Shown here: positions 9,157 through 62,897 of the stretch, in pieces
Layout of the letters: each line of letters begins with the position of its first letter
Position numbering within the stretch: the stretch's first letter is position 1
Assembly: GCF_001469875.2 (NCBI RefSeq)
Contig: NZ_LOPW02000016.1
Span: forward strand, 1 to 64,000
Source: Haloferax marisrubri
Lineage (GTDB): Archaea; Halobacteriota; Halobacteria; Halobacteriales; Haloferacaceae
Direction of reading: 5' to 3'
DNA: 64,000 nt
Position numbers and translations under genes: made by a program
Notes under the pieces: generated by a model
Told to the model about the DNA's origin: nothing
The model's input: only the letters and a program-made list of their open reading frames with translations
Databases searched by the model: none

Positions 9157-9593
9157 ATCTACAAATTGGATATGCCACCTGGTTACTGTTCCGAATCAGT
9201 GCAACAGTTGGTGTGATTCTCCCACACAATTGGGGGCGTACGAGGCAATATTACGAGGGAACCGGTCTGTGTCCACTCAGACCGTCCCAAATTACTGCAA
9301 TTGTCACCAATATGTTTCACTTGCGATAACTATTTGATAAATCCCGACAGAATTGATAATTGCTCGCACAGTCCGCAATCGGGTGACACCCACCTATCTG
9401 CGGTAGTGATATCTCTGCCCTGAAAATTATCACTTCCGCGACAGGTTTATGTAACTCGGGATGAAAGTATCATCCGGTCGAATTCACTCGAAACGGCCTA
9501 AACGGCTGATTCGGCATAGCCACGGCTATGTTGAGGGTGCGAGCGCCGGCGTCTATCCCACACTCGACGCCAACAACGATTCCCAAGCGAACC
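9157..9593. promoter_or_regulatory. Divergent control region with an inverted repeat in the operon leader
   Basis: A 437-bp gene-free region between the CARF regulator and block 1. A TATA-like GGTTTATG (about 9443-9450) suggests transcription from about 9470. The leader then contains CATAGCC-ac-GGCTATG (9515-9530), a 7-bp perfect inverted repeat that could be an operator or RNA hairpin. The second arm includes a possible ATG at 9528. Overlapping short frames from 9461 and 9528 look non-coding compared with the main start at 9594. Sequence near 9290-9365 is AT-rich and may hold the regulator's own promoter elements. Confidence 0.5.
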
Positions 9594-14463: not shown

Positions 14464-14464
14464 T

Positions 14465-15292: not shown

Positions 15293-15294
15293 CA

Positions 15295-20823: not shown

Positions 20824-20849
20824 CCAACATCCCACACACATTGCCACCG

Positions 20850-40553: not shown

Positions 40554-40555
40554 CG

Positions 40556-44275: not shown

Positions 44276-44422
44276 ACCCCGAGAATACCTGCCGTTGTCG
44301 AACCGAGATACACTCTCAGTTCTACTCTCCGAAAAGGATTGTAGTGTTCGAATGTCGTAAAAATATGATTAGAGGAGTGAGATTGTGCAATACTTAATAT
44401 CGTTGCACGCTGGTGTGTGACT

Positions 44423-46114: not shown

Positions 46115-46288
46115 GAACGGCGACTTCTAGCGATTTTTCTGTTGTTTTCGCGCTTTTAGCGGTTCTAGTCGTTCAGCCACAGGACCCACCAATTGGGACC
46201 ATTACAAGCACCAAAAACTAATTTAGGCACATTAGGTTGTAGTTACAGACAGATTTATATTCTTGGATAAACAACTGATAAGTGCAAT

Positions 46289-48424
46289 ATGGGGATTAGG
46301 GACAACCGGAAGTCGGAAGTTTTGGATGTCACAGCTGAAGGGGAATACACGTGGGACGAGGCGGTGGAGGGCGAACAGATCTCGGAGGGAACGAGGGTCA
46401 CTCTCACTGGCGAGTTCGTGACGCAGCACACAACACGGAACGCTAGCGTAGTTGCAAGCCGGATCTCGATCCGAATTGACGAGGACACGCTCGTCGACGT
46501 GATGCTCACTCCCTGTGACTTCGAAGAGCGGTTTGACCTCGTGACAGGAGCCCAGTACACGGTTACGGGGAAAGTAGCAACCTCACCGACGGCCTTGCCG
46601 CGCCACGAGTCCTCGTGTCCGGACTGTGGCGGAGCCCTCCGACAGCGAGGTGTAGTCGACAGCACAGAAGGCCTCGCGACCGCAGTCACCTCACTGAACG
46701 TCGGCGACCACTTCGTCGTGTGTGACGAGATTCACCGGGTCGCTCGGGATCTGAACGAGAAAACCGACGATTGGATACCGAGGGAACGACAGAGCAGACC
46801 GATTCCAAGCGGTCGATATCTGTGCGTCGACTGTGGGTCCGACGTTTCAGACTACGACCTCACACGAGAACACGGTGGCGAACCCATGCTGGAGATGGAT
46901 GCGTGTGCTGCACCAGCCAGCGAGTCACTCGGACTCTCAGTCGGTGGTTCTCGTGACGCCACGAACTTCCGTGAGAACATCCACGAGGGCTACGTTCCCC
47001 AACCTGACGCCCTCGCGTACGAAGGGTTGTTCTACGACTACCGGTTCCCCACAACTGAATCCGAGCACACGGAAGATGCTCTGTTCACACCGACCTTCGA
47101 ACGTGCCTCTGCACGAAACCCCGTGACCGGGGAACGAGAGGTGTACCTCTCGGTGGGACTCGATTCGTCGCTCAGTTCTTCTGAGTTCGAACGGCCACCC
47201 CTCGATGTCGTCGCTGTCCTCGACACCTCCGGCTCGATGTCGTCACCGTTCGACGAGTACTACTACGACTCTACAGGGACTCGCCGAGAAGTCGAAGACG
47301 AAGAGAAGAGTAACGACACCAAGATGGAGGCCGCAGCGGCGTCGTTGTGTGCCCTCACGGAGCAACTTGCTCCCGACGACCAGCTAGGTGTCGTGCTATT
47401 CGACAGTCGTGCCCACGTCGCGAAACCGCTTCGAGACGTCCAGTCGACCGACATGGACGCCATCCGAGGCCACATTCGTGATGTTCGTGCGGGTGGTGGA
47501 ACGAACATGGGCGAGGGGTTCGACGCCGCCCACCAGATGCTCGCAGAAATGGAACCTGACCGAGAGCAGCGTATCGTCTTCATGACCGATGCGATGCCGA
47601 ATACGGGTACGACACGGTCGAACCAACTCGTCGACCTAGTTGCCGATGCAGCGAGCGAGGGAACACACACCACGTTCGTCGGCATGGGCCTCGACGAAAA
47701 CGCCGAGTTGGCAAGTGACCTCTCTGCAGTCCGCGGAGCGAATCACTACTTCGTCCACTCCGCTTCTGAGTTCGAGCGGCGGCTGGGAGAAGAGTTCGAC
47801 TACATGGTCTCCCCGCTCGTCTTCGACCTCTCGTTGTCGGTCGACACCGAGGGCTACGAAGTCGACGGCGCCTACGGGGTTCCGAACGCGGATATCGAGG
47901 ACGGCAGGGTGCTGGACGTCACCACTCTCTTCCCTTCGCCGACGAGCAATGGTGAATCTCGCGGAGGTGTCATCCTCGTACGGTTGCACCGAACCAATAG
48001 CGAAGAACCGAGCGTCGAACTCGACCTCTCGTGGGACGAAGGTGAAGGTGTCACACGGGGGACCCGTGTCGCCGTCGACGTCCCGAGCGGGAAACACTTC
48101 GACGGCTCTGGAATCCGAAAGGCCGTGGTCTTGAGTCGATACGGACGGGTCCTCCGTGAATGGGCGTCGTGGGCACGGTCTGTGTCAGCTGCTGACCAAA
48201 CAGGGATTGTCGACGACTGGGTCGGTGCGCGAACGACTCGGAACGAACACGAACGTGGCTCGGTACCGATACGAATCTCCAACTCCTACGCTGCGGTCTT
48301 CCGCGACCTTCGTGCACACATCGTCTCCGAGTCCACAGAAATCGACGACGAGACACTCAGCCGTGAAGTCGAGGTTCTCGATAGTCTACTCGCACACACC
48401 GAAGAGGAGAGGCGGTCGCAATGA
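46289..48424 (+). CDS. VWA-domain protein with N-terminal OB-like and zinc-ribbon region
   Basis: 711 aa. The N-terminus looks like an OB fold (about 25-105: TRVTLTGEFVTQHT ... TVTGKVATSPTA). It is followed by CPDCGGALRQRG (about 110-121) and CVDCGSD (about 179-185), which together could bind zinc. The VWA domain has an intact MIDAS: DTSGS (312-316), a GGTNMGEGF loop Thr (~402) and FMTDAMP Asp (~432). VWA proteins are metal-dependent adaptors, often paired with ATPases in conflict systems. A TATA-like TTTATATT lies ~30 nt upstream. It overlaps the beta-CASP nuclease gene by 4 nt. The role is likely assembly or target tagging, which is inferred. Confidence 0.8.
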   Translation: MGIRDNRKSEVLDVTAEGEYTWDEAVEGEQISEGTRVTLTGEFVTQHTTRNASVVASRISIRIDEDTLVDVMLTPCDFEERFDLVTGAQYTVTGKVATSPTALPRHESSCPDCGGALRQRGVVDSTEGLATAVTSLNVGDHFVVCDEIHRVARDLNEKTDDWIPRERQSRPIPSGRYLCVDCGSDVSDYDLTREHGGEPMLEMDACAAPASESLGLSVGGSRDATNFRENIHEGYVPQPDALAYEGLFYDYRFPTTESEHTEDALFTPTFERASARNPVTGEREVYLSVGLDSSLSSSEFERPPLDVVAVLDTSGSMSSPFDEYYYDSTGTRREVEDEEKSNDTKMEAAAASLCALTEQLAPDDQLGVVLFDSRAHVAKPLRDVQSTDMDAIRGHIRDVRAGGGTNMGEGFDAAHQMLAEMEPDREQRIVFMTDAMPNTGTTRSNQLVDLVADAASEGTHTTFVGMGLDENAELASDLSAVRGANHYFVHSASEFERRLGEEFDYMVSPLVFDLSLSVDTEGYEVDGAYGVPNADIEDGRVLDVTTLFPSPTSNGESRGGVILVRLHRTNSEEPSVELDLSWDEGEGVTRGTRVAVDVPSGKHFDGSGIRKAVVLSRYGRVLREWASWARSVSAADQTGIVDDWVGARTTRNEHERGSVPIRISNSYAAVFRDLRAHIVSESTEIDDETLSREVEVLDSLLAHTEEERRSQ

Positions 48425-50703
48425 GCGCCGACCTCGTAGGCGATGCCGATGTCGTCACTGAACACGTCGTCTCCCGTGTCTCGTACCACCACGTCAACGT
48501 CGACGCCGGTAACGAATCGGTTCTCCTCCGGTTCGAATACGAAAACCGAGAACAAGCATCCTGTATACTCGTCGACGCGGGAGAGGGGGTAGAACTCGGC
48601 CCATATCTCCGCCCGAACGATTCGCTCGTCGCGGTCTGTCTCACACATGCCCACGCCGACCATTACCAGTCACTCGAGAACGTGGTTCGCGACGATGCTC
48701 CGATACTAACATCTCCATCGACAGCCGAGATACTCGAGACGGTCCTCAAGTCCGCTGCAGACCGCGGATTCGTGACCGATACGGGTCGTGTCTGTGAGGC
48801 CGTGAACCCCGTCGATACGTGGACAGACGTCGCACCAGGAGTCCGCGTCCATCCAGTTCCTTCGGGCCACGCACCAGGTGCTGTTGGTTTCGTGATCCGG
48901 TTCCGTGACGACGATGGGACCCACGACATCCTCTTCACCGGTGACTTCACCTGTGAGTCTGCAGGAGGGTACCCCGGATTCGACCCTGACGTCGCTCCAG
49001 ACGTAGAAGCGCTATTCCTCACAGTCGCGACGGCAGAGTCGTCTAGCGACGAGTTGACCGCTGGAATCGCAACGGCGCTGGAACGGGCACACGGTGGTGC
49101 AAGCGTACTCGTCACCGCCGGGGGACTCGATGCTGTACACCTTGCAACACTCCTCACCAGTGCGTCCACCGAATTAGACCTCGACGTTCCGATACGTATC
49201 GCCGGACAAGCGGCGAAGCTCTACGAAGACCTCGAATACGAGTTCGAAGGTGTCCACACCATTCCGGAGTTCGAACACACGACTGAGTGCCTCGATAGTG
49301 GTGCTATCACTATTGCTGGGCCAGACGTCCCAACTGAGGGAAGCTCAGGACGACTCTACGACGCACTCTCGGACGACCCGAACGCGTGCCTCGTCCAGTT
49401 TGTCTCGTCTGGGAAGTCACCAATATCCGGTGGTGGACCGTGTGCGACGTTCGCCTTTGCCGCTACTGCACACCCTCCGAGAGACGTTCTCGACAGTGTC
49501 GTCGACGAAATCGACCCTGTTGAGGTCGTAACGATCCACGAACACGGTGGTGCAGGAGGTCGATACAACGACTGGAAACCGTGCGTCTGGTCCGATGGTT
49601 CTGACGAGGAACTGACTCTCTTCGATGACGGTCGATGGCTGACTCCGCCCTGGATGGACTCTCGGTTTGCTCGAGTTCCAGACCGTCCTATGGACCTCGG
49701 GTTTCTGGCCAGACAGGAGATCGGTGATCTCCCGCTCGTGTCGCTCGACCGGTCCGAGACGATCGACCTTGAAGAGGAAGGTATCGATATCGAGCAGCTT
49801 CGCGAACGGTTGCACCTTGGTCACAGAGACGACCACAAGCCAACCCAGAATACGACATCCAAGCAAATGACTGACGAATCAGAGACACCCGATCAGACGA
49901 ATCGCTCCGAACAAAAACTGTTCAAGACCGTCGGTGCAGACGTCGAACAACAGGATACGCTTTCGAACGATTCCATCACACCGAAGGGTCTCGTCTCGGC
50001 GCGAGCGTGGAATGGACTTAGCGGCCAAGAGGCCACACAGAGTTCCGACACGGAGACGCATCAAGAGGACTCCGACCCCGAAGATCACGACCAGAAGAGC
50101 CAGGCCACAGAGAGCGATACGGCGTCGGCCACCAAGGCCGAGACCGAGGATTCAGAAGTCGAAGAACCCGCCACAGTTCGCGATGACGACACAATCCCCA
50201 CGGAGGACACACAAGTGACAACCGACACAGTCGACGAGAAGAATTCTGACGAACGGATACACGGCGCTGAATCTGCACAATTCAGTCTCGAAGCCGACCC
50301 ACTTCTCCTCGCGCTGGTGGAACGAGAGGTTGGTGCGGGCTCCATCGAAGCCTTCGTCACCGAATCCATTCAGGCGTACCTCGAAGCATTGCTCCGGACA
50401 GGAGAACCACCAGAAGGGACGGTTGGAAGTCTCGAATTCGACGTGACGGCAGGTACTCGGCTAACGCAGGCGCTCGAAAGCGCCGTCGAAGACGACGGGC
50501 ACGACTCACTGTCATCATTCGTTCGGACAGCGCTCACAGACCTTCTCGGTACCACTGCTGGGACCGAAGTCTCCCTTTCCGACCATCGGGTCGACGAGCG
50601 ACTGATCGAAGCGGCGGTCGCCAACGACAAGCACGGCTTCGATACTCCTGGGGACTTCGCTAACGCGGCGATCCTCTGGGCACTCAGTGACGAAGAGAAC
50701 TAG
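48421..50703 (+). CDS. Beta-CASP metallo-beta-lactamase nuclease with triple RHH-like tail
   Basis: 760 aa. The MBL metal ligands are present: motif 1 ILVDAGE (Asp ~44), motif 2 HAHADH (77-82), motif 3 SGHAPGAVGF (His ~144), motif 4 FTGDFT (Asp ~175). A beta-CASP-like insert and VVTIHEHGG (motif C His ~364) follow, as in RNase J/CPSF/SNM1-type nucleases acting on RNA or DNA 5' ends. Residues ~450-615 are a disordered Glu/Asp/Thr/Ser linker. The tail (about 618-760) has three RHH-like units (FSLEADPLLLALVERE; LEFDVTAGTRLTQALE; VSLSDHRVDERLIEAA). It overlaps the VWA gene by 4 nt and lies 28 nt before the PD-(D/E)XK gene. Confidence 0.82.
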   Translation: MSADLVGDADVVTEHVVSRVSYHHVNVDAGNESVLLRFEYENREQASCILVDAGEGVELGPYLRPNDSLVAVCLTHAHADHYQSLENVVRDDAPILTSPSTAEILETVLKSAADRGFVTDTGRVCEAVNPVDTWTDVAPGVRVHPVPSGHAPGAVGFVIRFRDDDGTHDILFTGDFTCESAGGYPGFDPDVAPDVEALFLTVATAESSSDELTAGIATALERAHGGASVLVTAGGLDAVHLATLLTSASTELDLDVPIRIAGQAAKLYEDLEYEFEGVHTIPEFEHTTECLDSGAITIAGPDVPTEGSSGRLYDALSDDPNACLVQFVSSGKSPISGGGPCATFAFAATAHPPRDVLDSVVDEIDPVEVVTIHEHGGAGGRYNDWKPCVWSDGSDEELTLFDDGRWLTPPWMDSRFARVPDRPMDLGFLARQEIGDLPLVSLDRSETIDLEEEGIDIEQLRERLHLGHRDDHKPTQNTTSKQMTDESETPDQTNRSEQKLFKTVGADVEQQDTLSNDSITPKGLVSARAWNGLSGQEATQSSDTETHQEDSDPEDHDQKSQATESDTASATKAETEDSEVEEPATVRDDDTIPTEDTQVTTDTVDEKNSDERIHGAESAQFSLEADPLLLALVEREVGAGSIEAFVTESIQAYLEALLRTGEPPEGTVGSLEFDVTAGTRLTQALESAVEDDGHDSLSSFVRTALTDLLGTTAGTEVSLSDHRVDERLIEAAVANDKHGFDTPGDFANAAILWALSDEEN

Positions 50704-51955: not shown

Positions 51956-54841
51956 CTATCCGAATAGGTCTTCGTAATCGTCAGGGTCGCTCACGAGACT
52001 TCCCTCTCCGTCGTTCTCTTTGTACTTCCACGAACTCGGTTCGTCGACGACACCTGCGAAGATTGGGTTGCCATCTTCGTACGCGATTGCGTGGTGTGCT
52101 TCGTTGACTGTCACAGCACCGCCTCCTTTGAGTTCATAGACGAACTCGGCAACCTTCCGAACCGAGTCTGTCGTGATGAACTTCCGTCCATCACTAGCCT
52201 TTTCGAACGGAGACCCTTCGTGGTCGACACTGAACTGGTATCCGTCACGTGGGCCGGGATATGGCTCGCCCACCTCGAGTTCATCTTCGCTTGGGACCGG
52301 CTGGGATTCACGGGCTTCTGGGAGTTCGTCAATCGACGCTTCGCGAAGTTCACCCGCCAAAGTGCCATCGCCGGGCACCCACGTCTGGTGAGTCACCTCT
52401 GCACTCGCGAGATCCTCTTCCCAGTCGTGCTCGTAGAAGATGTTCTCGTCGACTGTGTCACGCGCATAGAGAACGTGAAGCTCTGAACGCCCCGCAGACT
52501 TTCCGGTACGGAGTACACGACCGAGCGTTTGGATTCGCTGTCGAACGCTTCCTGAAGAAACACGGACGATTCCGACGTCTGCACTCGGAACGTCCACTCC
52601 CTCGACAAGTGCTTTCACACTGAGCATGACGTTCGCGAACCCGTCGTCACCGAACCAGTCGATAGCGAGGTCGTTCCAGAGGGGATTTCGATGCCCCGAA
52701 TGGTACATCACCGGACGGTATTCGCTGGACAGGAAGAGTTCCTCCAGTCCTTTGTCGACCTGTTTCAGTTGTGGATACTGTTCGTACAGTTCGGCGCGAC
52801 CAGTTTTCGGCCCCGAGATTCGACCAGTCCTGACGTTTCGCCCACGCCCCTCACTCGGCGCGACCATCCGCTCTAACTGCTGAATTCTCTCCTGGAAGAC
52901 GATGGCTTTCTTGTCGTGTTCGATGGTGTCCTGAAGAAGGTGGAGCGTAATCGCCTGTCTCGCCACTGCGTCGGCGATGAGGTCTCGTCGTTCCTGGGTG
53001 TACCTGAAGTAATCGCCGATCGCAGGGGTTGCACCTTCGGTGGAGTTCTGTATCGTCCGAAGCTTCTGGGCGAAGTTGCCATCGAGTTCGTAGAGTCGAT
53101 TCTGATACCGAAGTTCGATATCGTTGACTGCGTCCGAGACCTTTCTCGATAATCGGTCGTATGCCCCACGCTCTGCAGGTGTGAGGTCGAATCCGATGTA
53201 GTTCACACGGAATTCGGGGATGAGATTGCGTGAGATGGCTTCGTCGTACGTCAAGTCATAGTAGACGTCGCCCAGTTCGGAGACGAGCAACGAATCGGAC
53301 GCCGTCCACTCCTCTGGGTCTCGGGACGAGAGCGGTGTCGCAGACAGACCCAGTTGAGCAGTTCGGTGATAATCGAAGACAGACGAGAACACGTTACCGG
53401 TGTATCTGTGACACTCGTCGGCGACGAGGAGGTGTGGTGGGTTGTCGACTCGAGAAAGTGAGATCTCGAGGTAGTCGTCTTTGACGACTGAGTTCACGAT
53501 ACCGACGAGAACTCGGCGGTCATCAGCGAAGTCGTCTTTGTGCCCACCGCCAAGCCATCCGACGTCACTTGGTGGGACGTTGAGCTTCTCGATGAGTTCG
53601 TCGAGCCACTGCCGCATGAGGATGTTCGTTGGGACAAGTACGGTGACGACTCCATCTGGGTTCTCGTCTAGCCACCGCTTGATGATTTCCAATGCCATGA
53701 CCGTCTTCCCTGCACCAGTGACGACACTCGCGATGCCAGAGTGTGATGGGGTGGTCCCATCTCGGAACCACTGGTTTGCCGCCTCTTCTTGCCACTCGTA
53801 GAGTGAGAATTTGTCTGGGAAGCGGTAGTGAGTGCGTCCTTCTGGGGACTTTTGCTCGAGCATGTCCCGTGAGAGCCCTGACCCGGTTCCGTCGAGGATC
53901 GCGCGTACCTCTTCCTCGTCGGTCGCATTCACTAATCGCTCTAAGACCGAAGCAGTGAGCCCAGAGAGATCGTTTCCACCGACCGACTCGAAACGAGACT
54001 TCACTTTTTTCCGGAGTTCGCGCCGGCGGCGCTCTTGGGCGACGTACTTCTCGTCGCGTCGCATTCGAGGCCGGGTCGGGTCGTTCGTTAAGACACCGTC
54101 GTCGAGGTAGTCCTCTCGGAAGGTGTCGAACATCTGTCGGTGCTTCCCAAGTCCTCCGGACTCCCGGTACACGTAGTACTTCGCCAACTCACGTTTTATT
54201 CTGTCATCGGGTGGGTCGACGTCGGAGCCCTCTCGTGCGAGCCATCGCTCGAACTGCCAGAAGATGTCGGCATCTCTGAAACGGTCGGCAAACCGTTCTG
54301 CGAGATCACCTACAACGTAGCCATCGTTTGTCTTACGTGCAGCACCAAGTTCACACAGCAGTACTGGATACCCACGGATGCCCTGTTCGTTGAACTCGTA
54401 ATCGTGGTCGTCTTCTAACCGCGAGCGGAGTGCTCCCCGTGAGAGGGGATTATCCGCGTTGAGTAGGATGCGATTGAGTGCGTGGAGCCCCTCGATTCCC
54501 TCTGGAAAGTTCCCATCGATGGCCCAACTCTGTTTGATCGCATACCACAGGAAAGTCTCGTAATCGATGTCGCCGTCTAACCACCGATCGGCGAACGACC
54601 AAACCGAGATGTTTCCGTCGACCTGCCTGAGTACGCCTAACTGAACGTACGTACTCACGATCCGTTTGAGATACTGTTCAGAGTATTGCCCACCCTCGGG
54701 TTTCAATAACCGCTCCTGTGCGCGTGCGACGAACGAACGCTTGTCTATCGGCTCCGCGGCAGCTATCGAGACGAAGACCCGACAACGCCGGTTCGTATCG
54801 TCGTCCACACCGAACAATGGGGTCGGAAAGCGGCGACTCAT
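51956..54841 (-). CDS. XPB/Rad25-like SF2 helicase
   Basis: 961 aa. The N-terminal ~330 residues contain winged-helix-like parts (SEQYLKRIVSTYVQLGVLR; GALRSRLEDDHDYEFNEQGI). The core is YEWQEEAANQWF (Q region), VVTGAGKTVMALEI (~374-379), VLVPTNILMRQWLDEL (Ia), ADECHRYTG (DECH, ~474), LGLSATP (III), VFQERIQQLERM, EGVDVPSADVGIV (V) and QRIQTLGRVLRTG (VI, ~767). This is the archaeal XPB-like/restriction-type SF2 layout. The last ~130 residues form an unassigned domain. It lies 3 nt after the Trp-module gene, so the two are co-transcribed; that partner may be its regulatory subunit. Confidence 0.85.
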   Translation of the reverse strand: MSRRFPTPLFGVDDDTNRRCRVFVSIAAAEPIDKRSFVARAQERLLKPEGGQYSEQYLKRIVSTYVQLGVLRQVDGNISVWSFADRWLDGDIDYETFLWYAIKQSWAIDGNFPEGIEGLHALNRILLNADNPLSRGALRSRLEDDHDYEFNEQGIRGYPVLLCELGAARKTNDGYVVGDLAERFADRFRDADIFWQFERWLAREGSDVDPPDDRIKRELAKYYVYRESGGLGKHRQMFDTFREDYLDDGVLTNDPTRPRMRRDEKYVAQERRRRELRKKVKSRFESVGGNDLSGLTASVLERLVNATDEEEVRAILDGTGSGLSRDMLEQKSPEGRTHYRFPDKFSLYEWQEEAANQWFRDGTTPSHSGIASVVTGAGKTVMALEIIKRWLDENPDGVVTVLVPTNILMRQWLDELIEKLNVPPSDVGWLGGGHKDDFADDRRVLVGIVNSVVKDDYLEISLSRVDNPPHLLVADECHRYTGNVFSSVFDYHRTAQLGLSATPLSSRDPEEWTASDSLLVSELGDVYYDLTYDEAISRNLIPEFRVNYIGFDLTPAERGAYDRLSRKVSDAVNDIELRYQNRLYELDGNFAQKLRTIQNSTEGATPAIGDYFRYTQERRDLIADAVARQAITLHLLQDTIEHDKKAIVFQERIQQLERMVAPSEGRGRNVRTGRISGPKTGRAELYEQYPQLKQVDKGLEELFLSSEYRPVMYHSGHRNPLWNDLAIDWFGDDGFANVMLSVKALVEGVDVPSADVGIVRVSSGSVRQRIQTLGRVLRTGKSAGRSELHVLYARDTVDENIFYEHDWEEDLASAEVTHQTWVPGDGTLAGELREASIDELPEARESQPVPSEDELEVGEPYPGPRDGYQFSVDHEGSPFEKASDGRKFITTDSVRKVAEFVYELKGGGAVTVNEAHHAIAYEDGNPIFAGVVDEPSSWKYKENDGEGSLVSDPDDYEDLFG

Positions 54842-54844
54842 GGG

Positions 54845-55681
54845 CTACCAGTCTTCAGGATCGTCGGAGTATACGGTGTGGTCCTTGGAATCCGTTTTTG
54901 ATGTGGTACCAAGAGATGCAGCCCAGGATTCGAGCTCCTCACGCTCGTCGACAGAGAGTGAGTCTGTCAGCGATGGTGGCTCGCTAACCTCGAGTGGTGT
55001 CTCTTCGATCTCCCCAATGTAGACGGGGAGCATCTCGACACCACGCTCTTTTCGGAGCTTGATCACGTTTCTGACGACTCGGGGGAGGTCCCCGAACTGA
55101 CTTCGAACTTGCTCGGGAGCAGGATGGGCATTGACTAGTGTGATAACTTCGTTTGAAGGCGTCACGCGGAACGACCCGCCATTTGGTTTGTACGACCGGA
55201 GTGCAGCGAGAATATCTCCAGAAATCTCTGTCTCGACTGGATGACGTTTCCCTGTTTCTGGGTTCTGCCACCAGACTCGTTCACCACCGGCACCGAGAGA
55301 GAATTTCGAGCCATCGTACACACTTGGCCAGAGGTCGCCCATAGAGAGACCAGATGGAGACACATCGAACGCAAACGTCTCTGCGTCTTTTGGCACCAGT
55401 TCACCCTGAAGATCGAGCGTACCCACCCACGTGGTCTTGTACGAATCCCCGTCTTCTTCCTGAGTGAGGACGTCCCCTGATTCTGTGACTCTGACACGAC
55501 CCCCAAGACGCTTGATCTTCAGGAGGTCTTCAACGAGGGATTCGGGCGTTGGGTCAAGGTACAGACGGTCGGTACCTTGGTAGACCTGCCACCAGACGTC
55601 TCCATCTGGGTTCGTGTGGAGTCGAAATCCTCGATAGTATTCTGGCCATTCGTCACCGGGAGAGAGAGTGTGGCTCGTCAT
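54845..55681 (-). CDS. Trp-module protein 1 (two copies of an unnamed ~65-residue module)
   Basis: 278 aa, no known family. Residues ~10-75 and ~110-175 are two copies of one module: an acidic 'PGDEWPEYY/GDLWPSVY' start, a (V)WWQ core strand (GDVWWQVYQ; GERVWWQNPE), a middle 'LVEDLLKIKRLGG' or 'ILAALRSYKPNGG' helix, and an 'RVRVTESGDVLT / FRVTPSNEVIT' hairpin end. A charged C-terminal tail follows. The same module occurs twice in the protein at 62001-62897. It starts the operon that continues with the XPB-like helicase. The repeated beta-rich units suggest a binding (not catalytic) role. Confidence 0.72.
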   Translation of the reverse strand: MTSHTLSPGDEWPEYYRGFRLHTNPDGDVWWQVYQGTDRLYLDPTPESLVEDLLKIKRLGGRVRVTESGDVLTQEEDGDSYKTTWVGTLDLQGELVPKDAETFAFDVSPSGLSMGDLWPSVYDGSKFSLGAGGERVWWQNPETGKRHPVETEISGDILAALRSYKPNGGSFRVTPSNEVITLVNAHPAPEQVRSQFGDLPRVVRNVIKLRKERGVEMLPVYIGEIEETPLEVSEPPSLTDSLSVDEREELESWAASLGTTSKTDSKDHTVYSDDPEDW

Positions 55682-55810: not shown

Positions 55811-57595
55811 ATGGGCAAGGGGAATTTGGGCACTTCACCTGACGTAGTGATGGATGTGAACCGGCGACCCGAGATACTCGAACGACTCGGCGAGACCGAC
55901 GTCACAGAGATCGGGGGACTTCCAACGCATCTGACAAATGTCGAAGCACAGCGCTTTGCAGCCGCGCAGGGACAACAGGAACTGCTGTCTCTCAAAGAGA
56001 TCGAGGACAAGATCAAACTCCTCGATCACCAGTTGGACGCAGCTCACAGGGCACTTTTTCAAATGGGTGGAGGTGCGCTCTTTGCAGACGAAGTTGGGTT
56101 AGGGAAGACAATCGAGGTTGGCATGGCGTTGAAAGAGATGGACTTCAGGGAGACGCACAAGACGTTTCTGGTTCTAACACCTGCTCAACTTGCTCCTCAA
56201 TGGCAAGAGGAACTCAGGACCAAATTTGATCTTGAGTTCGTTTGCAACTACGACGAGGAATTTGGGGGATTCGACGACCACGACAAGGTCGTCTCGAGCA
56301 TCGATACGGCGAAGACGAAGAGTCACATCGACGATGTTCTCGAACGGCGCTGGGACGTGCTCGTCCTCGACGAAGCACATTACATAAAGAACGAAGACAC
56401 CAAGCGGTACGAGCTCATCGAAGAGTTGGACTACGGACACGCCTATTTTGCGACAGCAACACCAATCCAGAACGACATCACGGACCTGTACAACATCGTC
56501 CGTCTCATCCGACCGGGTCTCCTCGGGAGTAGAGAAGAGTTCCGCCGAAAATTCGTTCCCAAGAACGACGATGCGCAGGTCAAGAACGGTTCAGAGCTTC
56601 AACGTCGCCTGAACCGAGTCATGATCCGCAACCGCCGTGAGGAGACGGACATAGACTTCACGAACCGTCGAGTGCAGACGAATACGTTCGAGCCCACACG
56701 CGACGAACGCGACGTGTACGACGCAGTGACGGACTATGTCCGTCAAAATTACACGAGCGAGGGGGCGAAGCACCTCGTCATGCTCATGCTACAGAAAGAA
56801 GCCGTGAGCAGTCCCTATGCCGTCCTCGGGACGATCGAAAAGTGGCTGAACGACCCTGAGAGGTCGGCCCCAGCAGAGCGCGAACAACTCTACGAGATCG
56901 AGACGCTGATAGATGGACTCGGTCAGACGACAAAACAGAAGAAGCTTGCAAACGTCGTCGAGGGCCTCGAAGAGAATCTGAACACAACCCGTGCAGTCGT
57001 GTTCACACAGTTTAGGCCAACGCAAGACGCGATTGCAGACTACATCTCTGGGCGTGGACACCCGGTCCACGTGGTCAATGGAGACGTCTCCAGTAAGGGG
57101 AAGCAACGAGCAATCGACAAATTCGAAGACGAAGGCGGCGTGATGGTCGCGACCGACTCGATCAGCGAAGGGCAGAATATGCAGTTCTGTAACGTCCTCG
57201 TGAACTACGATCTACCCTGGAACCCGATGAAGGTCGAACAGCGAATCGGACGTGTGGACCGCATCGGCCAAAACAAGGACGTCTACGTGTTCAACCTCGC
57301 TCTCGAAGGGACTGTCGAAGAACACGTCCTCGACAAACTCTACGGGAAGATCGACTTATTCAATCAGTCTATTGGAGGATTGCGGGACGTCCTCTCTCGG
57401 ATGGAAAAATCGGGTGCAGACTTCGAGCGGGAAGTCTTCGATAGGTTGCGGACCGCAGACGACGAAGTCGAACTCGAGAACAACTTCGAAGAGATGGCGG
57501 TCGACCTCGAGAAGAACAAAGAGGCTGCCGAGAAGATGGCAGACTTCAACAAGGACGTGTTCGGAACCTTCGAGTTCACTGGAGGGACAGCGTGA
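55811..57595 (+). CDS. Snf2-family helicase/translocase, short (RapA/DrmD-like core)
   Basis: 594 aa with a complete Snf2 core: HQLDAAHRALFQM (Q), DEVGLGKTIE (about 93-102), LTPAQLAPQWQEEL (Ia), DEAHYIKN (about 187-194), ATATPIQND (III), VVFTQFRPTQDAI (IV), SEGQNMQFCNVLVNYDLPWNP and QRIGRVDRIGQ (about 477-487, VI). It ends soon after the core with a helical region (LEGTVEEHVLDKLYGKIDLF; LENNFEEMAVDLEKNKE). Full RapA/DrmD-type proteins continue for 300-400 residues past this point; here the protein stops and its continuation appears to be encoded by the next gene, which overlaps it by 4 nt. It should translocate on dsDNA. Confidence 0.87.
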   Translation: MGKGNLGTSPDVVMDVNRRPEILERLGETDVTEIGGLPTHLTNVEAQRFAAAQGQQELLSLKEIEDKIKLLDHQLDAAHRALFQMGGGALFADEVGLGKTIEVGMALKEMDFRETHKTFLVLTPAQLAPQWQEELRTKFDLEFVCNYDEEFGGFDDHDKVVSSIDTAKTKSHIDDVLERRWDVLVLDEAHYIKNEDTKRYELIEELDYGHAYFATATPIQNDITDLYNIVRLIRPGLLGSREEFRRKFVPKNDDAQVKNGSELQRRLNRVMIRNRREETDIDFTNRRVQTNTFEPTRDERDVYDAVTDYVRQNYTSEGAKHLVMLMLQKEAVSSPYAVLGTIEKWLNDPERSAPAEREQLYEIETLIDGLGQTTKQKKLANVVEGLEENLNTTRAVVFTQFRPTQDAIADYISGRGHPVHVVNGDVSSKGKQRAIDKFEDEGGVMVATDSISEGQNMQFCNVLVNYDLPWNPMKVEQRIGRVDRIGQNKDVYVFNLALEGTVEEHVLDKLYGKIDLFNQSIGGLRDVLSRMEKSGADFEREVFDRLRTADDEVELENNFEEMAVDLEKNKEAAEKMADFNKDVFGTFEFTGGTA

Positions 57596-60500
57596 GTACC
57601 GACGCTCAAGACTCGAAGGACACCCGCGTCCTCAACGTGCTCAACGTCAAGCGGTTCACCGAAGCTGTGATCACGTCCAGGGGAGGAACCGTCGACAGGG
57701 ACGACCCATCACGCTGGGATGTCAAACTCCCCCCAGAGTTGGTCGGCGACCAATTCGATAGGCGGGCCACACTCGTCTTCGACCCTGCCGAGCGACAGAT
57801 CGGCGAAGGAGACGTACTCGCGGCACCAGGAACACCATTTTTCAACACTCTCGTCCAGACCACAAACAGAGGAGAGACGATCGGCAGTGTTCGGTTCAGT
57901 GCAGAATCTGTACAGCTGCAAGTCCCACCGGTTCTGGAAGTGTGCGACCTCGACGTCACGACGAAGTCGTTCGTCCGCGAGCAGACGAAGACAGCACTCG
58001 TATTCCACGTCGCTGCGGAGTTCGAGAGTAAGAGTTCCTTCCAGCAACTGACTCTCGAGACGGTCGTCGTCGACCCCAACACAGGAAAACGCCTGCCGGC
58101 CATCGAAGACCGGTACCTCTCACACTGGAACTCGTTCCTCGGTCAGACGCCCGCACGGGCGGATGTCGATGTCGGCACTGAAACCCTGTATTCCACCTAC
58201 GACGTGGCTCTCGAAACCGTTGAAGAACGGATTCAAGACACGACACAGGAACTCGTTTCCGAAGCAGATTCGGACGTCTCTGAGCGTGCCAAGGAGATTC
58301 GCCGACTCTACAAACAACGTAGAGGTGAACTCGACCAGCGAATCGAAGACAAAAAAGAGGAGATCAGGGAGTGGGAAGACAAGCGCCAGCGTGCTCGAAA
58401 AGACAGCACCAGGAACCGGTACTACCAGAACTATATCTCGGCAAAAGAGGAGCTCGAAGAGATCAAACAGAGCGTCGAAGACCGCAAAGCAGAGCTCAGG
58501 CGAGAAGAACGCAACCGAATCGAGAACGTCCGCGACGAACACGACGTGCAGGTCGACGTCTCACTTGCAGGGTTCACGTATCTCGAGTACGACGTTGGCA
58601 CGCTTCGAATCGAACTAGACGACGGGGACCGGAGCGGGGTCTTGGGTATTGGATACACCCCCGCAAAAGGTGAGTTCGACCCCGTCGAGTGTACGGAGTG
58701 CGGAGTCACGTTTTCGAAAAGTGAGCGTCCACAGCTGTGTGACGACGGCCACGTCGTCTGTGCTGACTGTCTCGAAACCTGTGTGACCTGCGAAACAACA
58801 CTCTGTGGCAACTGTTCGAACGGGTACGGATACGACTCGTGTGGTAGTTGCGGTGCCTTAGAGTGTGCACAGTGTTCCAGCACGTGTACCTCCTGTGGGA
58901 GCAACTCGTGTTCGTATCACAGATCCGAGTGCACGATGTGCGGCGAGACAACCTGTGTACTCTGTGGCGTTGGGTGTTCGACCTGTGGTGAGTTCCACTG
59001 TGACTCGCACCTCGTGGAATGTACTACCGACGGAGAACCACGATGTCTCGCACACGCGGCCATGTGTACCATCTGCGGCGATTACCACGGCGAAGAACAC
59101 GTCGAACCGTGTGGAGAGTGTGGTACGCTCATCTGTCCGGAAGACAGTTCAGATTGTTATACCTGTGGTGAGGTACATTGTTACGACCATCTTGTCCAGT
59201 GTGCAACTGACAGCGAGTGGCGCTGTGCCACACACGTCGACGTTTGCGAAGTTGACGGCGATGACCACGGGATAGAGAATCTCGAAGGCTGTACCAAATG
59301 TGGTGACACGCTTTGTCCAGAAGATCGGGAGACTTGCCTTACGTGTGATTCTATTCGGTGTCACGAACACTGCTCCCCGTGTCCCGCATGTGATGGGCAC
59401 CACTGTACTGAGCACCTCGAAGACTGCACAGTCTGTGAGGTCGGCCATTGCGGTGACCATCTTGAGGGATGTTCTGCATGTGGTGATCTCCTCTGCCCCG
59501 AAGACCGAATCACTTGTCAGGACTGTGGTGACGTCCTCTGTCCGACTCACGCAACTGAGTGCTCACACTCTGGGACACACTATTGTGATGACCACATGGG
59601 AACGTGCAGGCGGTGTGAAGAACCGGTGGGGTCCGAACATCTCATAGCGTGTGCCGATTGCAGTAAACCAGCGTGTCCAGACCACGCTGATTCGTGCACC
59701 GTCTGTGACGATGACTTCTGTGAATCTCACGTCGAAGTCTGCCAGACATGTGAGCTTGGGGTTTGTGAAGACCACTCTGAGACCTGTGTAGTGTGTGAAG
59801 AGGTCACGTGTATCGACGACCTCGAAACGTGCCACACATGCGATCAGAACGTCTGTGAAGGACATTCAGAGACGTGTGCGTCCTGTGAAGAGGTCACGTG
59901 TACCGACGACCTCGAAACGGGCACATACTCCGGTGAGCTGTTCTGTCCAGATGACCGGTCCAAGTGTATCCACTGCGGAGAAATAACTGGATACGTATTC
60001 CTCACGGAGTGCGAAACCTGCACTGAGCTCACGTGCCCATCCCACACCGAAGCCTGCTCTATCTGTGAGGATGACCTCTGTGAATCTCACGTCGAAGTCT
60101 GTCAAACGTGTGAGCAGGGAGTGTGTGAAGTACATTCGAAGACTTGCGACGCGTGCGGAGAAGTCACCTGCACGTCTGATTTAGAAGCGTGTGCCGACTG
60201 TGGAGACCAGCTCTGTCCCGACGACAGGTCGTCATGCGGTCACTGCGGCGAACACTTCTGTACAGATACTGTCACCCAATGTGGGGTTTGTGACGAACCA
60301 CACTGCACAGAACATATCGATCACTGCTCAGTCGGTGAAGAAGCAGTCTGTGTTACTCACATCACGACGTGCGCGGTTTGTGAAGACACCATCTGCGTAG
60401 ACCACGCCGAAGCGTGCGTCGAGTGTGGAGAGGATGTGTCGTACTGTCCGTCTCACCTCGTCGAATGCGGAACGTGTGACGACAAGCTGTGTCGCGATCA

Positions 60501-60969
60501 CCGGAGCCAATGCGACGTTGGTGGGGACGAGTTCTGCCGACGTCACCTGTCGGGCGGTGGCCACGGGGGCGATCTCGTCGCGTGTGACGACCACGTCCAC
60601 ATGTGTGTAGAGTGCAACAAGCCGGTTATCTCGGTGAATGCAGTCGAAGCACCAATCCAGTCGGGATACGTCGCCAAGGAGCACGTAGAGGCGTGCTCTC
60701 TGTGTGAGCAATCGTATGCGCCGGTTTCCCTAGAACAGGGTCGTTGTGAGACCTGTCGAACACTGGGTTCTGCCTCCAAGCAAGCGGTCCCCCAGTCCAT
60801 CCAAGACGACTTCCGAACAGTCAAAGCGAGCACGAATGCACGGTATCTCGTCGTCTACGGGAAGTCACTGTTCGGCGCGAACGAACTCGTCGTGTTAGAT
60901 GATGCCGGGAATGAGGTCAACAGGAGGAAACGTGGGGTCATTCGCCGCATTGTGGAGGTGTTCCGATGA
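57592..60969 (+). CDS. RapA-C-like/coiled-coil protein with ~39-unit Cys/His zinc array
   Basis: 1125 aa from a GTG that overlaps the Snf2 stop (GTGA). Residues 1-190 (SRWDVKLPPELVGDQF; ATLVFDPAERQI; VLAAPGTPFFNTLV) look like the segment that follows the helicase core in RapA/DrmD-type Snf2 proteins. A coiled coil spans ~200-318. From ~367 to ~1056 the protein is a near-perfect tandem array of 15-residue units with consensus CxxCxxxxCxxHxxx; the best units match exactly (CQTCELGVCEDHSET; CTVCDDDFCESHVEV). Every fourth unit in part of the array loses one cysteine. A C-terminal ~70 residues (YLVVYGKSLFGANELVVLDD) closes the protein. It probably binds dozens of metal ions. Function unknown; scaffold, nucleic-acid filament binder or metal sensor are possibilities. 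Not a known named family that I recognise. Confidence 0.85.
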   Translation: MSTDAQDSKDTRVLNVLNVKRFTEAVITSRGGTVDRDDPSRWDVKLPPELVGDQFDRRATLVFDPAERQIGEGDVLAAPGTPFFNTLVQTTNRGETIGSVRFSAESVQLQVPPVLEVCDLDVTTKSFVREQTKTALVFHVAAEFESKSSFQQLTLETVVVDPNTGKRLPAIEDRYLSHWNSFLGQTPARADVDVGTETLYSTYDVALETVEERIQDTTQELVSEADSDVSERAKEIRRLYKQRRGELDQRIEDKKEEIREWEDKRQRARKDSTRNRYYQNYISAKEELEEIKQSVEDRKAELRREERNRIENVRDEHDVQVDVSLAGFTYLEYDVGTLRIELDDGDRSGVLGIGYTPAKGEFDPVECTECGVTFSKSERPQLCDDGHVVCADCLETCVTCETTLCGNCSNGYGYDSCGSCGALECAQCSSTCTSCGSNSCSYHRSECTMCGETTCVLCGVGCSTCGEFHCDSHLVECTTDGEPRCLAHAAMCTICGDYHGEEHVEPCGECGTLICPEDSSDCYTCGEVHCYDHLVQCATDSEWRCATHVDVCEVDGDDHGIENLEGCTKCGDTLCPEDRETCLTCDSIRCHEHCSPCPACDGHHCTEHLEDCTVCEVGHCGDHLEGCSACGDLLCPEDRITCQDCGDVLCPTHATECSHSGTHYCDDHMGTCRRCEEPVGSEHLIACADCSKPACPDHADSCTVCDDDFCESHVEVCQTCELGVCEDHSETCVVCEEVTCIDDLETCHTCDQNVCEGHSETCASCEEVTCTDDLETGTYSGELFCPDDRSKCIHCGEITGYVFLTECETCTELTCPSHTEACSICEDDLCESHVEVCQTCEQGVCEVHSKTCDACGEVTCTSDLEACADCGDQLCPDDRSSCGHCGEHFCTDTVTQCGVCDEPHCTEHIDHCSVGEEAVCVTHITTCAVCEDTICVDHAEACVECGEDVSYCPSHLVECGTCDDKLCRDHRSQCDVGGDEFCRRHLSGGGHGGDLVACDDHVHMCVECNKPVISVNAVEAPIQSGYVAKEHVEACSLCEQSYAPVSLEQGRCETCRTLGSASKQAVPQSIQDDFRTVKASTNARYLVVYGKSLFGANELVVLDDAGNEVNRRKRGVIRRIVEVFR
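58690..60750 (+). repeat. In-gene tandem repeat array: ~39 units of 45 bp (15 codons)
   Basis: The coding repeat inside the preceding gene. Each 45-bp unit encodes C-x2-C-x4-C-x2-(H/D)-x3. Units keep length 15 with almost no indels from about unit 3 to 37, while third positions and the variable residues have diverged; the DNA is not a simple-sequence repeat. Blocks are duplicated at higher order: three adjacent units starting at ~59698 (CTVCDDDFCESHVEV, CQTCELGVCEDHSET, CVVCEEVTCIDDLET) recur 360 bp (8 units) later at ~60058 with few changes. A four-unit (180-bp) period is visible for the variants lacking the second or third Cys. Confidence 0.85.
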
Positions 60970-61931
60970 GCAACAGACACAATCCAGAGTGGTACGATGC
61001 GGGGTCGGTCCGGAAGACAATCGAACGAGCAGTCGACGACTCAGTTCCAGTGTATAAACTGATAGACTTCATCCACAAGAAGGAGTATTCGTCTGTGTCC
61101 GAACGACGGGTGAAGCGACTCGTCGAAGGAACCCTCGAACAACTCGACGAGAAGATCAGTCAGACGGAACTCTCGCAGCCCCGGTCGACGGATTCGTCAC
61201 CCCGCCCGATGGAGAACCGACGTGCAGACGTCGACGACGTCGAATATCTTTCGACGGACGAGTTCGCTCGCGTGTTGGGTGTCGTCCTCCAACGTTTCGA
61301 GGGGAGGACTCGACGGTCTGACGTCCGTGACTCAGCCGTCGACCTCTACTGGAATCGCTCGCACACCACTGTGGGAATCCGTACCGTCTCTGTCGTATCT
61401 GGTTGCTCAGTTTCTGCTCAGGAGGTGCGTCCGATGGTGGACGGCAACACGAAACCCCGGGAGGGGCGAGCACCGTCTGATCTCGTCGTCGTCACGAACG
61501 GCACCTTCGACGCAGATGCTCGAGAGTTAGCTGACGAACACGGAATTTTCCTGTGTAATGGTGACCAGTTGGAGCAGTGGTTCCGGATTGCTGGCGTCTC
61601 TGATAGTCTTCTCGCTGACGTGCTCGAGAGAGGGAAGGAACGCGAGTTCGACATGGACGCTCGTGTCGAAGAAGAACCAAGCATTCCTCCCCAAGTCACG
61701 GACTTTGACGTGATTGAGGAGTTGTCGTCGTCATCAGCTTCACGACCTGAGATCGTGGACGAGGAGCACGAGATCGAACCACCGTCCGAACCTCCGCAAG
61801 GTGGTGCAGATGAGTCTCCGCAAGCAGGAGAGTACGGTCGCCTCGGTGCCGACGAAAGCGAAGATGCAGATGGAGACGTGTTCGGTGACCTTCAGAAAAA
61901 GGTGAATGAACAAACAAATGATTCAAATTGA
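60966..61931 (+). CDS. Degenerate Mrr-like restriction endonuclease-fold protein
   Basis: 321 aa, ATG overlapping the previous stop by 4 nt. The N-terminus is helical/wHTH-like (VRKTIERAVDDSVPVYKLIDFI). The middle (about 85-215) has the Mrr_cat layout: DEFARVLGVVLQRFEG, DSAVDLYWNRSHTTVGIRTV and VVVTNGTFDADARELADEHG, then FLCNGDQLEQWF, which matches the ivTxGxFxxxAxxxA...IxLxDGxxL end of Mrr. The catalytic QxK/ExK pair is replaced by GIRTV, so the cutting site seems lost. The C-terminus is a long acidic tail. It probably keeps DNA binding but not cleavage, or uses different residues. It closes the Snf2 operon. Confidence 0.65.
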   Translation: MSNRHNPEWYDAGSVRKTIERAVDDSVPVYKLIDFIHKKEYSSVSERRVKRLVEGTLEQLDEKISQTELSQPRSTDSSPRPMENRRADVDDVEYLSTDEFARVLGVVLQRFEGRTRRSDVRDSAVDLYWNRSHTTVGIRTVSVVSGCSVSAQEVRPMVDGNTKPREGRAPSDLVVVTNGTFDADARELADEHGIFLCNGDQLEQWFRIAGVSDSLLADVLERGKEREFDMDARVEEEPSIPPQVTDFDVIEELSSSSASRPEIVDEEHEIEPPSEPPQGGADESPQAGEYGRLGADESEDADGDVFGDLQKKVNEQTNDSN

Positions 61932-62000: not shown

Positions 62001-62897
62001 ATGACCGCGACGTACAGTCGCGAGGAGACCACGGTACCGCTCCCTGGTGGAAGGTCTGTGACCATCGAGCCCGGGCAACCGTGGCCATCGACGCATCGCG
62101 GTTCGCGATACAGTCTCGTGACGAGTGACGAGTTCCCTGAGGGAGCGATCAAGTGGGAGCAACGCGACCTCAATATCCATGCACGACCTCCCGAGGGTCT
62201 TCGGGATGTGCTGCGGAGCTTCGGGAAAAAAGGAGGACATGGGATCGTTCGTATCACGGCAGGAGGTGAGGTTCTGACGAAGATCAGAGCCGACGACTAC
62301 GTGAACGTCGACCAAGCAGTAGTGTCGTCAGGTTGGGTTCCGGTATACGTGGGTAAGCTCACCGGAGAAATCGACTTTGGAGAAGTCGATCTGAACCCTC
62401 CAAGGCAGACCGATTCTGTTCGTATTTGGTCCGGACTGCCGTTTCACCACGGAGAGCGCTGGTCGTTAGCAGAGGATGACGAACTTCACTGGCGGTGGAA
62501 AGATTACGACTTCACCTCAGCGTTCGACCACGACGAATTGGTCGAACGATACCGAACATATCGGCCTACTGGAGGTCGATTGTACATCACTGAACTCGGT
62601 CACGTGTGGGGTAACGTTTCACCGGGTGACCTCTCCGGGGAACGAGCAAGAGATATTCAGAATGCAGTCGATACGTGGGTTACTGAGACCGAACGGCAAG
62701 GAAACACAGCGGCACGTCGCCTGGTTAACCGACGGTTGTTAGTAACGAGTCAAACGGACGACCCGTCTGATGGACTACTCCCAGTTCACCTTGGTCATAT
62801 CTCAGAGTTCGACGGCGGGACGATACCACGCCCAGTCGTCGACGACGAGTCGTATTTCAAAGTCGTTGGCCAGTACGAACAAGTGTGGGAGTCCTGA
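62001..62897 (+). CDS. Trp-module protein 2, paralogue of the 54845-55681 protein
   Basis: 298 aa, no known family. It carries two copies of the same module as Trp-module 1: ~15-100 (GQPWPSTHRGSRY; EGAIKWEQRDL; GIVRITAGGEVLTK) and ~140-215 (GERWSLAEDD; ELHWRWKDYD; LVERYRTYRPTGGRLYITEL, GHVW). The linker and tail are charged. It lies 69 nt after the Mrr-like gene in the same orientation and may be the last gene of that transcript. Having one paralogue coupled to an XPB-like helicase and another next to the Snf2 operon suggests a common docking or recognition role. Confidence 0.7.
   Translation: MTATYSREETTVPLPGGRSVTIEPGQPWPSTHRGSRYSLVTSDEFPEGAIKWEQRDLNIHARPPEGLRDVLRSFGKKGGHGIVRITAGGEVLTKIRADDYVNVDQAVVSSGWVPVYVGKLTGEIDFGEVDLNPPRQTDSVRIWSGLPFHHGERWSLAEDDELHWRWKDYDFTSAFDHDELVERYRTYRPTGGRLYITELGHVWGNVSPGDLSGERARDIQNAVDTWVTETERQGNTAARRLVNRRLLVTSQTDDPSDGLLPVHLGHISEFDGGTIPRPVVDDESYFKVVGQYEQVWES

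What the first reader, a model, noticed from the sequence alone, without database searches (positions are those of the whole stretch)
57592..60969. A 1125-aa protein built of ~39 tandem 15-residue Cys/His units
Translation shows a near-gapless array of CxxCxxxxCxxHxxx units from residue ~367 to ~1056. I know of no described protein with such a long regular zinc-type array in a helicase operon. Most units carry 3 Cys plus His/Asp, so it could hold about 35-40 metal ions. It might form a rigid rod, a nucleic-acid-binding filament, or a metal store/sensor for the neighbouring Snf2 enzyme. The repeat itself is seen directly; the metal count and role are inference.
Basis: partly seen in the sequence, partly recalled or inferred. 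Interest (0 to 1): 0.9.

Follow-up and report, generated by a model that had tools for sequence, protein, structure and literature searches.

The report
Interlocked zinc-ladder repeat beside Snf2 motor
A salt-loving archaeon makes a protein with about forty copies of a 15-residue metal-binding unit, and sequence evidence suggests that each metal ion clips one unit to the next in one long chain, next to a DNA motor in a probable antivirus gene cluster.

Summary
In detail: ORF 57592-60969 (1125 aa) carries 42 CxxCxxxxCxxH units of 15 residues (residues 367-1041), far above chance, coding (dN/dS 0.008 at ligands), without match in Pfam, NCBIfam or PADLOC. Ligands are lost in pairs: the CxxC of unit i goes with the CxxH of unit i+1, not with its own unit. 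This was seen in 20 haloarchaeal proteins and again in 58 arrays from elsewhere. Independently, an AlphaFold2 model (pLDDT 96) and a sequence profile both point first to FYVE-type cross-brace zinc fingers. So this looks like a cross-brace finger without an end, with about 30 complete sites. The gene follows a Snf2 gene in 36 of 39 haloarchaeal loci (exceptions are partial copies), in a six-gene operon within a defence island. Arrays also occur in bacteria and other archaea, beside Snf2 or fused to HerA-like ATPases or an Mrr nuclease. Array length rose from about 10-13 to 37-46 units on one branch of the Snf2 tree. Best guess for function: a stiff protein scaffold in a Snf2-driven defence complex; that step is inference. 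Metal identity and geometry were not measured.

The parts
57592..60969 (+). Zinc-ladder protein, 1125 aa, GTG start overlapping the snf2 stop codon (GTGA)
57592..58176 (+). N-terminal alpha/beta part (residues 1-195), shared with the array-less ~390-aa partners
58177..58539 (+). Coiled coil (residues about 196-316)
   Evidence: AF2 helices H196-267, H271-316; structural matches to coiled coils only
58690..60714 (+). Array of 42 complete 15-residue units (residues 367-1041), about 30 four-ligand inter-unit sites
59920..60000 (+). Dead site: CxxC half of one unit (residues 777-780, GTYS) and CxxH half of the next (800-803, GYVF) have lost all four ligands; the two halves between them are intact
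60757..60966 (+). C-terminal domain (residues 1056-1125), similar tail seen by eye in several bacterial array proteins
55811..57595 (+). Snf2 ATPase, 594 aa, helicase core only, closest to DrmD/BrxHII/HmaA/RapA models
60966..61931 (+). Mrr-like protein, 321 aa, ATGA overlap with the array gene; catalytic Q-x-K replaced
62001..62897 (+). 298-aa protein, paralogue of the 278-aa protein
54845..55681 (-). 278-aa protein, on the divergent side of the operon
51956..54841 (-). 961-aa SF2 helicase, PbeA/XPB-like

Best explanation
The array is one continuous, interlocked cross-brace zinc repeat. Each site takes the CxxC pair of unit i and the CxxH (or CxxD) pair of unit i+1, so sites overlap like links and n units give about n-1 sites. 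It forms a length-tunable, metal-stiffened arm that follows a coiled coil on the partner subunit of a Snf2 DNA motor. In this operon the arm most likely serves as a scaffold that places the other subunits (second helicase, Mrr-like protein, two paralogous 278/298-aa proteins) around the motor in an anti-invader system. Shown by sequence: the repeat, the pairing of ligand loss, the operon, its spread. Predicted by model: the fold. Inferred: zinc as the metal, the stiff-arm and scaffold role, defence function.
For: Pairing: in 20 aligned haloarchaeal proteins both-ligand loss of A(i) and B(i+1) coincides in 8 cells at 4 aligned column pairs, OR 68, p 9e-10; with at least one ligand lost, 28 cells against 12.4 +/- 3.0 in 1000 within-protein shuffles, 0 of 1000 as high. 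Repeated on 58 arrays outside the haloarchaeal Snf2 set: OR 187 (3 cells) and 15.6 (7 cells), no other offset significant. Fold: AF2 of 8 units with 90 rows, pLDDT 96.2; best VIA rows are FYVE and FYVE-like fingers (1vfy Z 5.7, 55 aligned, 3.4 A; 2cjs_C Z 5.6, 48 aligned, 2.3 A); a profile against all PDB sequences has Vps27 FYVE 1vfy first, E 0.0037. Arm length changes by whole units: the only gap between the window and H. lucentense proteins is 120 residues, 8 x 15. Operon and Snf2 link. Growth of the array on the branch that also has the extra genes. Defence setting: DrmD/BrxHII/HmaA-like Snf2, defence genes around, array-less relatives near HmaB/HmaC-like genes in 15 of 16 loci.
Against: No Foldseek match at E <= 0.001 in PDB for either model, and VIA Z stays under 6, below the tool's own caution level. 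No coordinates were available, so ligand geometry was not measured. In the haloarchaeal set a second offset (-5) also shows excess with at least one ligand lost (OR 3.1; 8 of 1000 shuffles as high), not repeated in the second set. Rows are related, so p-values are too small. Full-length pTM is only 0.36, so straightness of the arm is untested. Two arrays (L088, L103) have no Snf2 in view, and many others are fused to HerA-like ATPases, so Snf2 is not obligatory. No experiment shows defence. The coincidence of long arrays and long operons is one event on the tree.
Confidence: 0.5

Rival explanations
1. The array is a nucleic-acid-binding filament: it wraps or tracks along DNA or RNA beside the motor, each unit touching the next stretch.
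For: Arrays accompany Snf2 motors, HerA-like ATPases and an Mrr nuclease, families that act on DNA. The HerA-fused L104 and the Mrr-fused L133 arrays are mildly basic (+7.1 and +9.0 net charge per 100 residues).
Against: Window array net charge is -115 over residues 367-1055 (partly halophile habit). Non-haloarchaeal arrays are near neutral, median +1.3 per 100 against 0.4 for the rest of the protein (n = 58), and of nine Snf2-adjacent ones the seven printed besides L146 (+1.6) and L091 (+0.6) lie at or below -0.3 where shown (L161, L118, L135, L166, L092, L102). No position of the unit is predominantly basic.
Confidence: 0.2
2. Metal store or sensor that informs the Snf2 enzyme.
For: Very high number of Cys/His/Asp ligands.
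Against: Ligand codons dN/dS 0.008 in a fixed spacing; whole sites die as units while neighbours persist, more like structural links. I made no search for metal-transport or metal-regulator genes nearby, so this rival is only weakly tested.
Confidence: 0.07
3. A disulfide-bonded, exported Cys-rich protein.
For: Cys-rich short repeats can be disulfide modules; the PDB sequence search of the whole protein listed a Kazal-type chain (E 0.63).
Against: The gene overlaps the Snf2 and Mrr genes (GTGA, ATGA), other array proteins carry ATPase or nuclease domains, D replaces H at 23% of units, and the nearest folds are zinc fingers. No signal-peptide predictor was run.
Confidence: 0.03
4. Each 15-residue unit is an independent small zinc site (CxxC and CxxH of the same unit), beads on a string.
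For: Simplest reading of the motif; 29 of 42 window units keep all four ligands within the unit.
Against: Same-unit co-loss is not above expectation: both lost 0 cells, at least one lost 8 against 17.4 in shuffles; in the second set 0 cells and 1 cell.
Confidence: 0.08

Closest known systems
FYVE / PHD / LIM cross-brace zinc fingers (best: Vps27 FYVE, 1vfy)
   Same: CxxCGxxFCxxH core; adjacent pairs belong to different metal ions; first by structure and by sequence profile. The FYVE ligand pairing 1+3, 2+4 is recalled.
   Different: Known ones are closed two-site domains; here the same linkage runs on through some 40 units with a 15-residue step. The FYVE lipid motif [RK][RK]HHC[RK] (recalled) is in 0 of 24 arrays.
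Snf2 defence helicases: DrmD (DISARM), BrxHII (BREX type 3), HmaA, DpdE, and RapA
   Same: Snf2 core matches DrmD (250 bits), BrxH, HmaA, DpdE and RapA models.
   Different: Core only, 594 aa, far below the equivalog cut-offs (DrmD_b 950, RapA 576); a separate partner gene with coiled coil and zinc array follows.
Hma system (HmaA, HmaB, HmaC; names from PADLOC)
   Same: The array-less sister pairs (Snf2 + ~390-aa partner) lie near HmaB/HmaC-like genes in 15 of 16 loci.
   Different: No HmaB/HmaC-like gene in the window or in the 46 loci of array-type genomes searched.
BRIGADE, YprA-type systems of halophilic archaea (PMC12458937, passages read)
   Same: Found in halophilic archaea; that family uses many zinc-binding modules. 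A YprA-like gene cluster lies about 30 kb upstream here.
   Different: Different genes; no 15-residue array is mentioned in the passages read.

Membership tests
Cross-brace zinc fingers (FYVE/PHD/RING type) | Interleaved metal sites: alternate ligand pairs share a metal | tested here: met
   Ligand co-loss at A(i)-B(i+1) in two data sets; indirect, no metal seen
Cross-brace zinc fingers (FYVE/PHD/RING type) | Fold match to solved members | tested here: inconclusive
   Best rows are members, but Z at most 5.7 and Foldseek E at best 0.015
FYVE domain | Basic lipid motif [RK][RK]HHC[RK] (motif recalled) | tested here: not met
   0 of 24 array proteins
DISARM (DrmD) | DrmD equivalog score | tested here: not met
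   250 bits against cut-off 950 and 245.8 against 610
RapA | RapA equivalog score | tested here: not met
   152.8 against 576
Hma | HmaB methylase and HmaC ATPase beside the helicase | tested here: not met
   tblastn of haloarchaeal HmaB/HmaC-like proteins: none in the window
Mrr nuclease (gene 60966-61931) | Mrr_cat fold by profile | tested here: met
   27.6 bits, Pfam cut-off 21
Mrr nuclease (gene 60966-61931) | Catalytic D...[QE]xK (motif recalled) | tested here: not met
   D126 kept, QxK replaced (VGIRT) in the window; kept (for example VGIQAK) in the short-type homologues
Metallothionein | Metal-thiolate clusters with bridging Cys | not testable with these tools
   no coordinates with metal

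The most novel reading that the evidence does not exclude
A new class of repeat protein: an open-ended cross-brace zinc ladder, in which every metal interlocks two successive 15-residue units without any domain boundary, used across archaea and bacteria as a length-tunable arm on DNA motors (Snf2, HerA-like) and nucleases (Mrr), and grown to about 37-46 units in a haloarchaeal defence operon.
Probability: 0.6. Interest if true: 0.85.

Novelty: new variant of a known kind. Interest (0 to 1): 0.74.

Why it matters
If right, this is a protein rod whose length is set by the number of zinc links, found beside several kinds of DNA-moving enzymes but without match in the family libraries tried. It gives a direct, cheap test (metal count and structure of a short fragment), describes an uncharacterised six-gene haloarchaeal operon with defence features, and links its array-less sister pairs to Hma-like systems. 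The array gene is easily missed: for one Haloferax plasmid it is not in the gene table held here, and three reverse-strand hypothetical genes stand in its place (that table is known to be incomplete).

Tried and rejected
Family libraries: Pfam, NCBIfam, PADLOC and PHROGs gave no match to the array of the window protein; only coiled-coil hits, plus PHROG 36169 (unknown function) on the array-less N-terminal part. Whole-protein PDB sequence search: nothing meaningful. Whole-model fold searches found coiled coils only. I considered that the N-terminal part is the detached C-terminal half of RapA/BrxHII (idea from PMC12839542, passages read); a PDB profile search found only coiled-coil and small zinc hits, so this stays open.

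Viral arrays: of 16 stretches in viral contigs only L072 passed the filter; the rest were short or low-complexity frames. tblastn of an array fragment, of L072 and of an array-less partner against phages found nothing. BFVD gave 24 predicted viral structures at E <= 0.001, several of them phage proteins, whose sequences I did not have. Genome contigs by peptide pattern: 93 stretches, none confirmed. Phylum search with the N-terminal profile: 16 of 392 genomes, all of the same order.

The co-loss signal at offset -1 (11 cells, 2 column pairs) I put down to gap filling in the irregular first unit; this is a judgement from the LCDD-type rows listed there, and within-protein shuffles show no excess at -1.

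Literature searches for a prior description of such an array: (listings only); none seen. Passages read: PMC12458937, PMC12839542, PMC7159879. Burroughs et al. 2011 on prokaryotic RING and binuclear treble-clef domains is the most likely prior art; its title was seen in a reference list, the paper is not held.

Named haloarchaeal records (for example L114, L126, L158, L235) may be the same genomes as some unnamed handles and were not counted as extra evidence.
Full report
What was claimed and what is there. The ORF at 57592-60969 encodes 1125 aa with an array of 15-residue Cys/His units. Cys-Cys pairs at lag 15 number 89 against 20.6 +/- 3.8 in shuffles. A half-unit parse finds 43 CxxC (A) and 42 CxxH (B) halves at residues 367-1041, 42 complete units. 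The unit consensus over 612 distinct units is C x x C [GDE] [ED] x [VLHF] C x x [HDC] x x x. The array is under purifying selection: between the window and the Haloferax lucentense plasmid pSVX82-3 copy, omega is 0.008 at ligand codons, 0.33 at other array codons, 0.13 in the N-terminal part and 0.03 in Snf2. Only 2 of 178 aligned ligand residues differ; by eye in the alignment one is H to D and the other is C to G at the already dead site of residues 777-780.

Where the metal sits. I asked which halves lose their ligands together. In 20 aligned haloarchaeal array proteins, loss of both ligands in A(i) and in B(i+1) coincides in 8 cells at 4 aligned column pairs (A only 12, B only 5, neither 511; OR 68). 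With at least one ligand lost: both 28, A only 61, B only 36, neither 411; OR 5.2. Within-protein shuffles give 12.4 +/- 3.0, and 0 of 1000 reach 28; same-unit co-loss is 8 against 17.4 expected. In all five B-only cells of the both-lost test, A has at least one ligand lost (rows listed). A weaker excess at offset -5 (17 against 9.5; 8 of 1000 shuffles as high) is unexplained and was not repeated. The second data set, 58 arrays from other archaea, bacteria and one viral contig, gives both 3, A only 1, B only 5, neither 311 (OR 187, p 4e-5), and with at least one lost 7, 13, 10, 290 (OR 15.6), with no other offset significant. The clearest single case is in the window: GTYS at 777-780 and GYVF at 800-803 have lost all four ligands while the two halves between are intact. 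This linkage, repeated, is a cross-brace without an end. Under it the window has 30 sites with four ligands (20 CCCH, 7 CCCD, 2 CCCC, 1 CCDD), 5 with three, 2 with two and 1 with none.

Fold. AlphaFold2 of the whole protein with 20 rows: mean pLDDT 81, much of the array 85-92, pTM 0.36, under 50 at 537-562 and 882-892; units typically show a loop, a short strand, one helical turn at CxxH and a short strand. An 8-unit fragment of homologue L041 with 90 rows: pLDDT 96.2, pTM 0.77. Its best PDB companions are LIM, PHD, RBR and FYVE fingers, none at E <= 0.001; VIA ranks FYVE and FYVE-like fingers first, Z up to 5.7, with 0 of 959 chains at Z 8. A sequence profile of 90 array windows finds Vps27 FYVE (1vfy) first among all PDB chains, E 0.0037, aligning CRSCGGVFCQEH to a unit. 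Metal ions were not modelled and no coordinates were available to me.

The gene family and its motor. In a draw of 391 genomes of the class, 73 had a match. I fetched loci of 39 homologues: 11 complete full-type, 6 short-type (675-676 aa), 2 of 907-946 aa (L049, L052), 16 array-less (386-447 aa) and 4 incomplete copies (L047, L050, L051, L053). Snf2 lies directly upstream in 36 of 39; the exceptions L047, L051 and L053 are all incomplete. Array sizes: window 42 and other complete full-type 37-46 units (incomplete L050 35, L051 52), short 10-13, L049/L052 10. The array-less partner is homologous over the N-terminal part, coiled coil and first zinc pairs. In a Snf2 tree of 41 rows each type is one side of a branch: full 100/100, short 100/100, all array-bearing haloarchaeal types together 100/99, the array-less group weak (68/47); the nine outside rows, which have arrays, include several on long branches. 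The simplest reading is an older array of about 10 units, loss in the array-less lineage, and growth in the full lineage, which is also the lineage with the extra helicase, 278-aa and 298-aa genes. H. lucentense differs from the window by a single 120-residue gap, exactly 8 units.

The operon and its setting. The core (PbeA-like helicase and 278-aa gene, divergent or upstream; snf2; array; Mrr-like; 298-aa gene) is conserved in the full-type genomes; in two of them (G336, G343) the helicase and the 278/298-aa genes stand apart. In the same regions of several genomes lie relatives of the window's VWA, MBL, UvrD, PD-(D/E)XK and DUF4143 genes, and in one genome (G348) the YprA-like cluster of the window. 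The window as a whole reads as a defence-gene island. In the genus search 3 of 15 genomes have a match, each of a different type: a patchy, accessory distribution. The array-less pairs lie near DUF499 (HmaC-like) or DUF1156 methylase (HmaB-like) genes in 15 of 16 loci, the other being cut by the contig end, and none of 46 loci of array-type genomes has them. In the long-type Mrr-like protein of the window the catalytic QxK is replaced, in the short type it is kept, so in the full system this subunit may bind rather than cut.

Beyond haloarchaea. After filtering, 58 non-haloarchaeal and 9 haloarchaeal arrays remain of 96 loci examined, viral ones included. Snf2 is directly adjacent on the same strand in 9 of the 58 (records named Bacillota, Proteobacteria, Clostridiaceae, Ktedonobacterales, Gemmatimonadetes, Calidithermus chliarophilus, DHVE2 and Aciduliprofundum), found both with the window Snf2 by blastp and with a profile trained on most of them; some of these partners also match the N-terminal profile. 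24 of the 67 arrays are fused to a HerA/DUF87-like ATPase (profile trained on 9 of them; Pfam checked for two). L133 (Methanoperedens) is fused to Mrr_cat, E 3e-19. Many of the rest are cut by locus or contig ends. L088 and L103 have no Snf2 in view.

How it most likely works. Shown: the repeat, the pairing of ligand loss, the motor link. Predicted: the cross-brace fold. Inferred: zinc, stiff arm, scaffold for the other subunits, defence. For a scaffold speak the near-neutral or acidic charge, the relaxed non-ligand positions (omega 0.33), whole-unit length change and the larger operon of the long-array type, the last being a single coincidence on the tree. Nucleic-acid binding remains the main rival.

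Noticed in passing
9528-28269: Seven-gene cluster with a 1842-aa YprA-like (DruE/DpdJ/DrmA) helicase and a DrmC-like protein; the set recurs next to the core operon in another genome (L217).
   Followed up: partly
34018-50703: Helicase, PD-(D/E)XK, UvrD (GajB-like), DUF4143, VWA and MBL genes; relatives lie near the core operon in several genomes, so they may belong to a larger system.
   Followed up: partly
60966-61931: Mrr-like protein with a degenerate catalytic motif in full-type operons but intact D...QAK in short-type ones.
   Followed up: yes
54845-55681 and 62001-62897: Paralogous 278/298-aa proteins with an internal repeat (WP..Y.G, by eye); their profile matches designed 'Cake' proteins (E 3e-6; beta-propellers, recalled).
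   Followed up: partly
L234:12001-15735: In Haloferax lucentense pSVX82-3 the array ORF (1245 aa) is not in the gene table; three reverse-strand hypothetical genes are listed over it.
   Followed up: yes
L146:2188-4707: The Calidithermus chliarophilus Snf2 beside an array has an N-terminal stretch that reads like a Ser/Thr kinase (by eye, not searched).
   Followed up: no
L072:12542-14813: Viral contig with a 462-aa array protein followed by an ORF that looks like a JAB/MPN protease (by eye).
   Followed up: no
L104, L117 and 22 other loci: HerA/FtsK-like ATPase, coiled coil and short zinc array in one protein, mostly archaeal MAGs.
   Followed up: partly
L054-L069: Array-less Snf2 + ~390-aa pairs near DUF499 and DUF1156 genes in 15 of 16 loci: a haloarchaeal Hma-like system, perhaps with a split helicase gene; PHROG 36169 resembles the partner.
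   Followed up: partly
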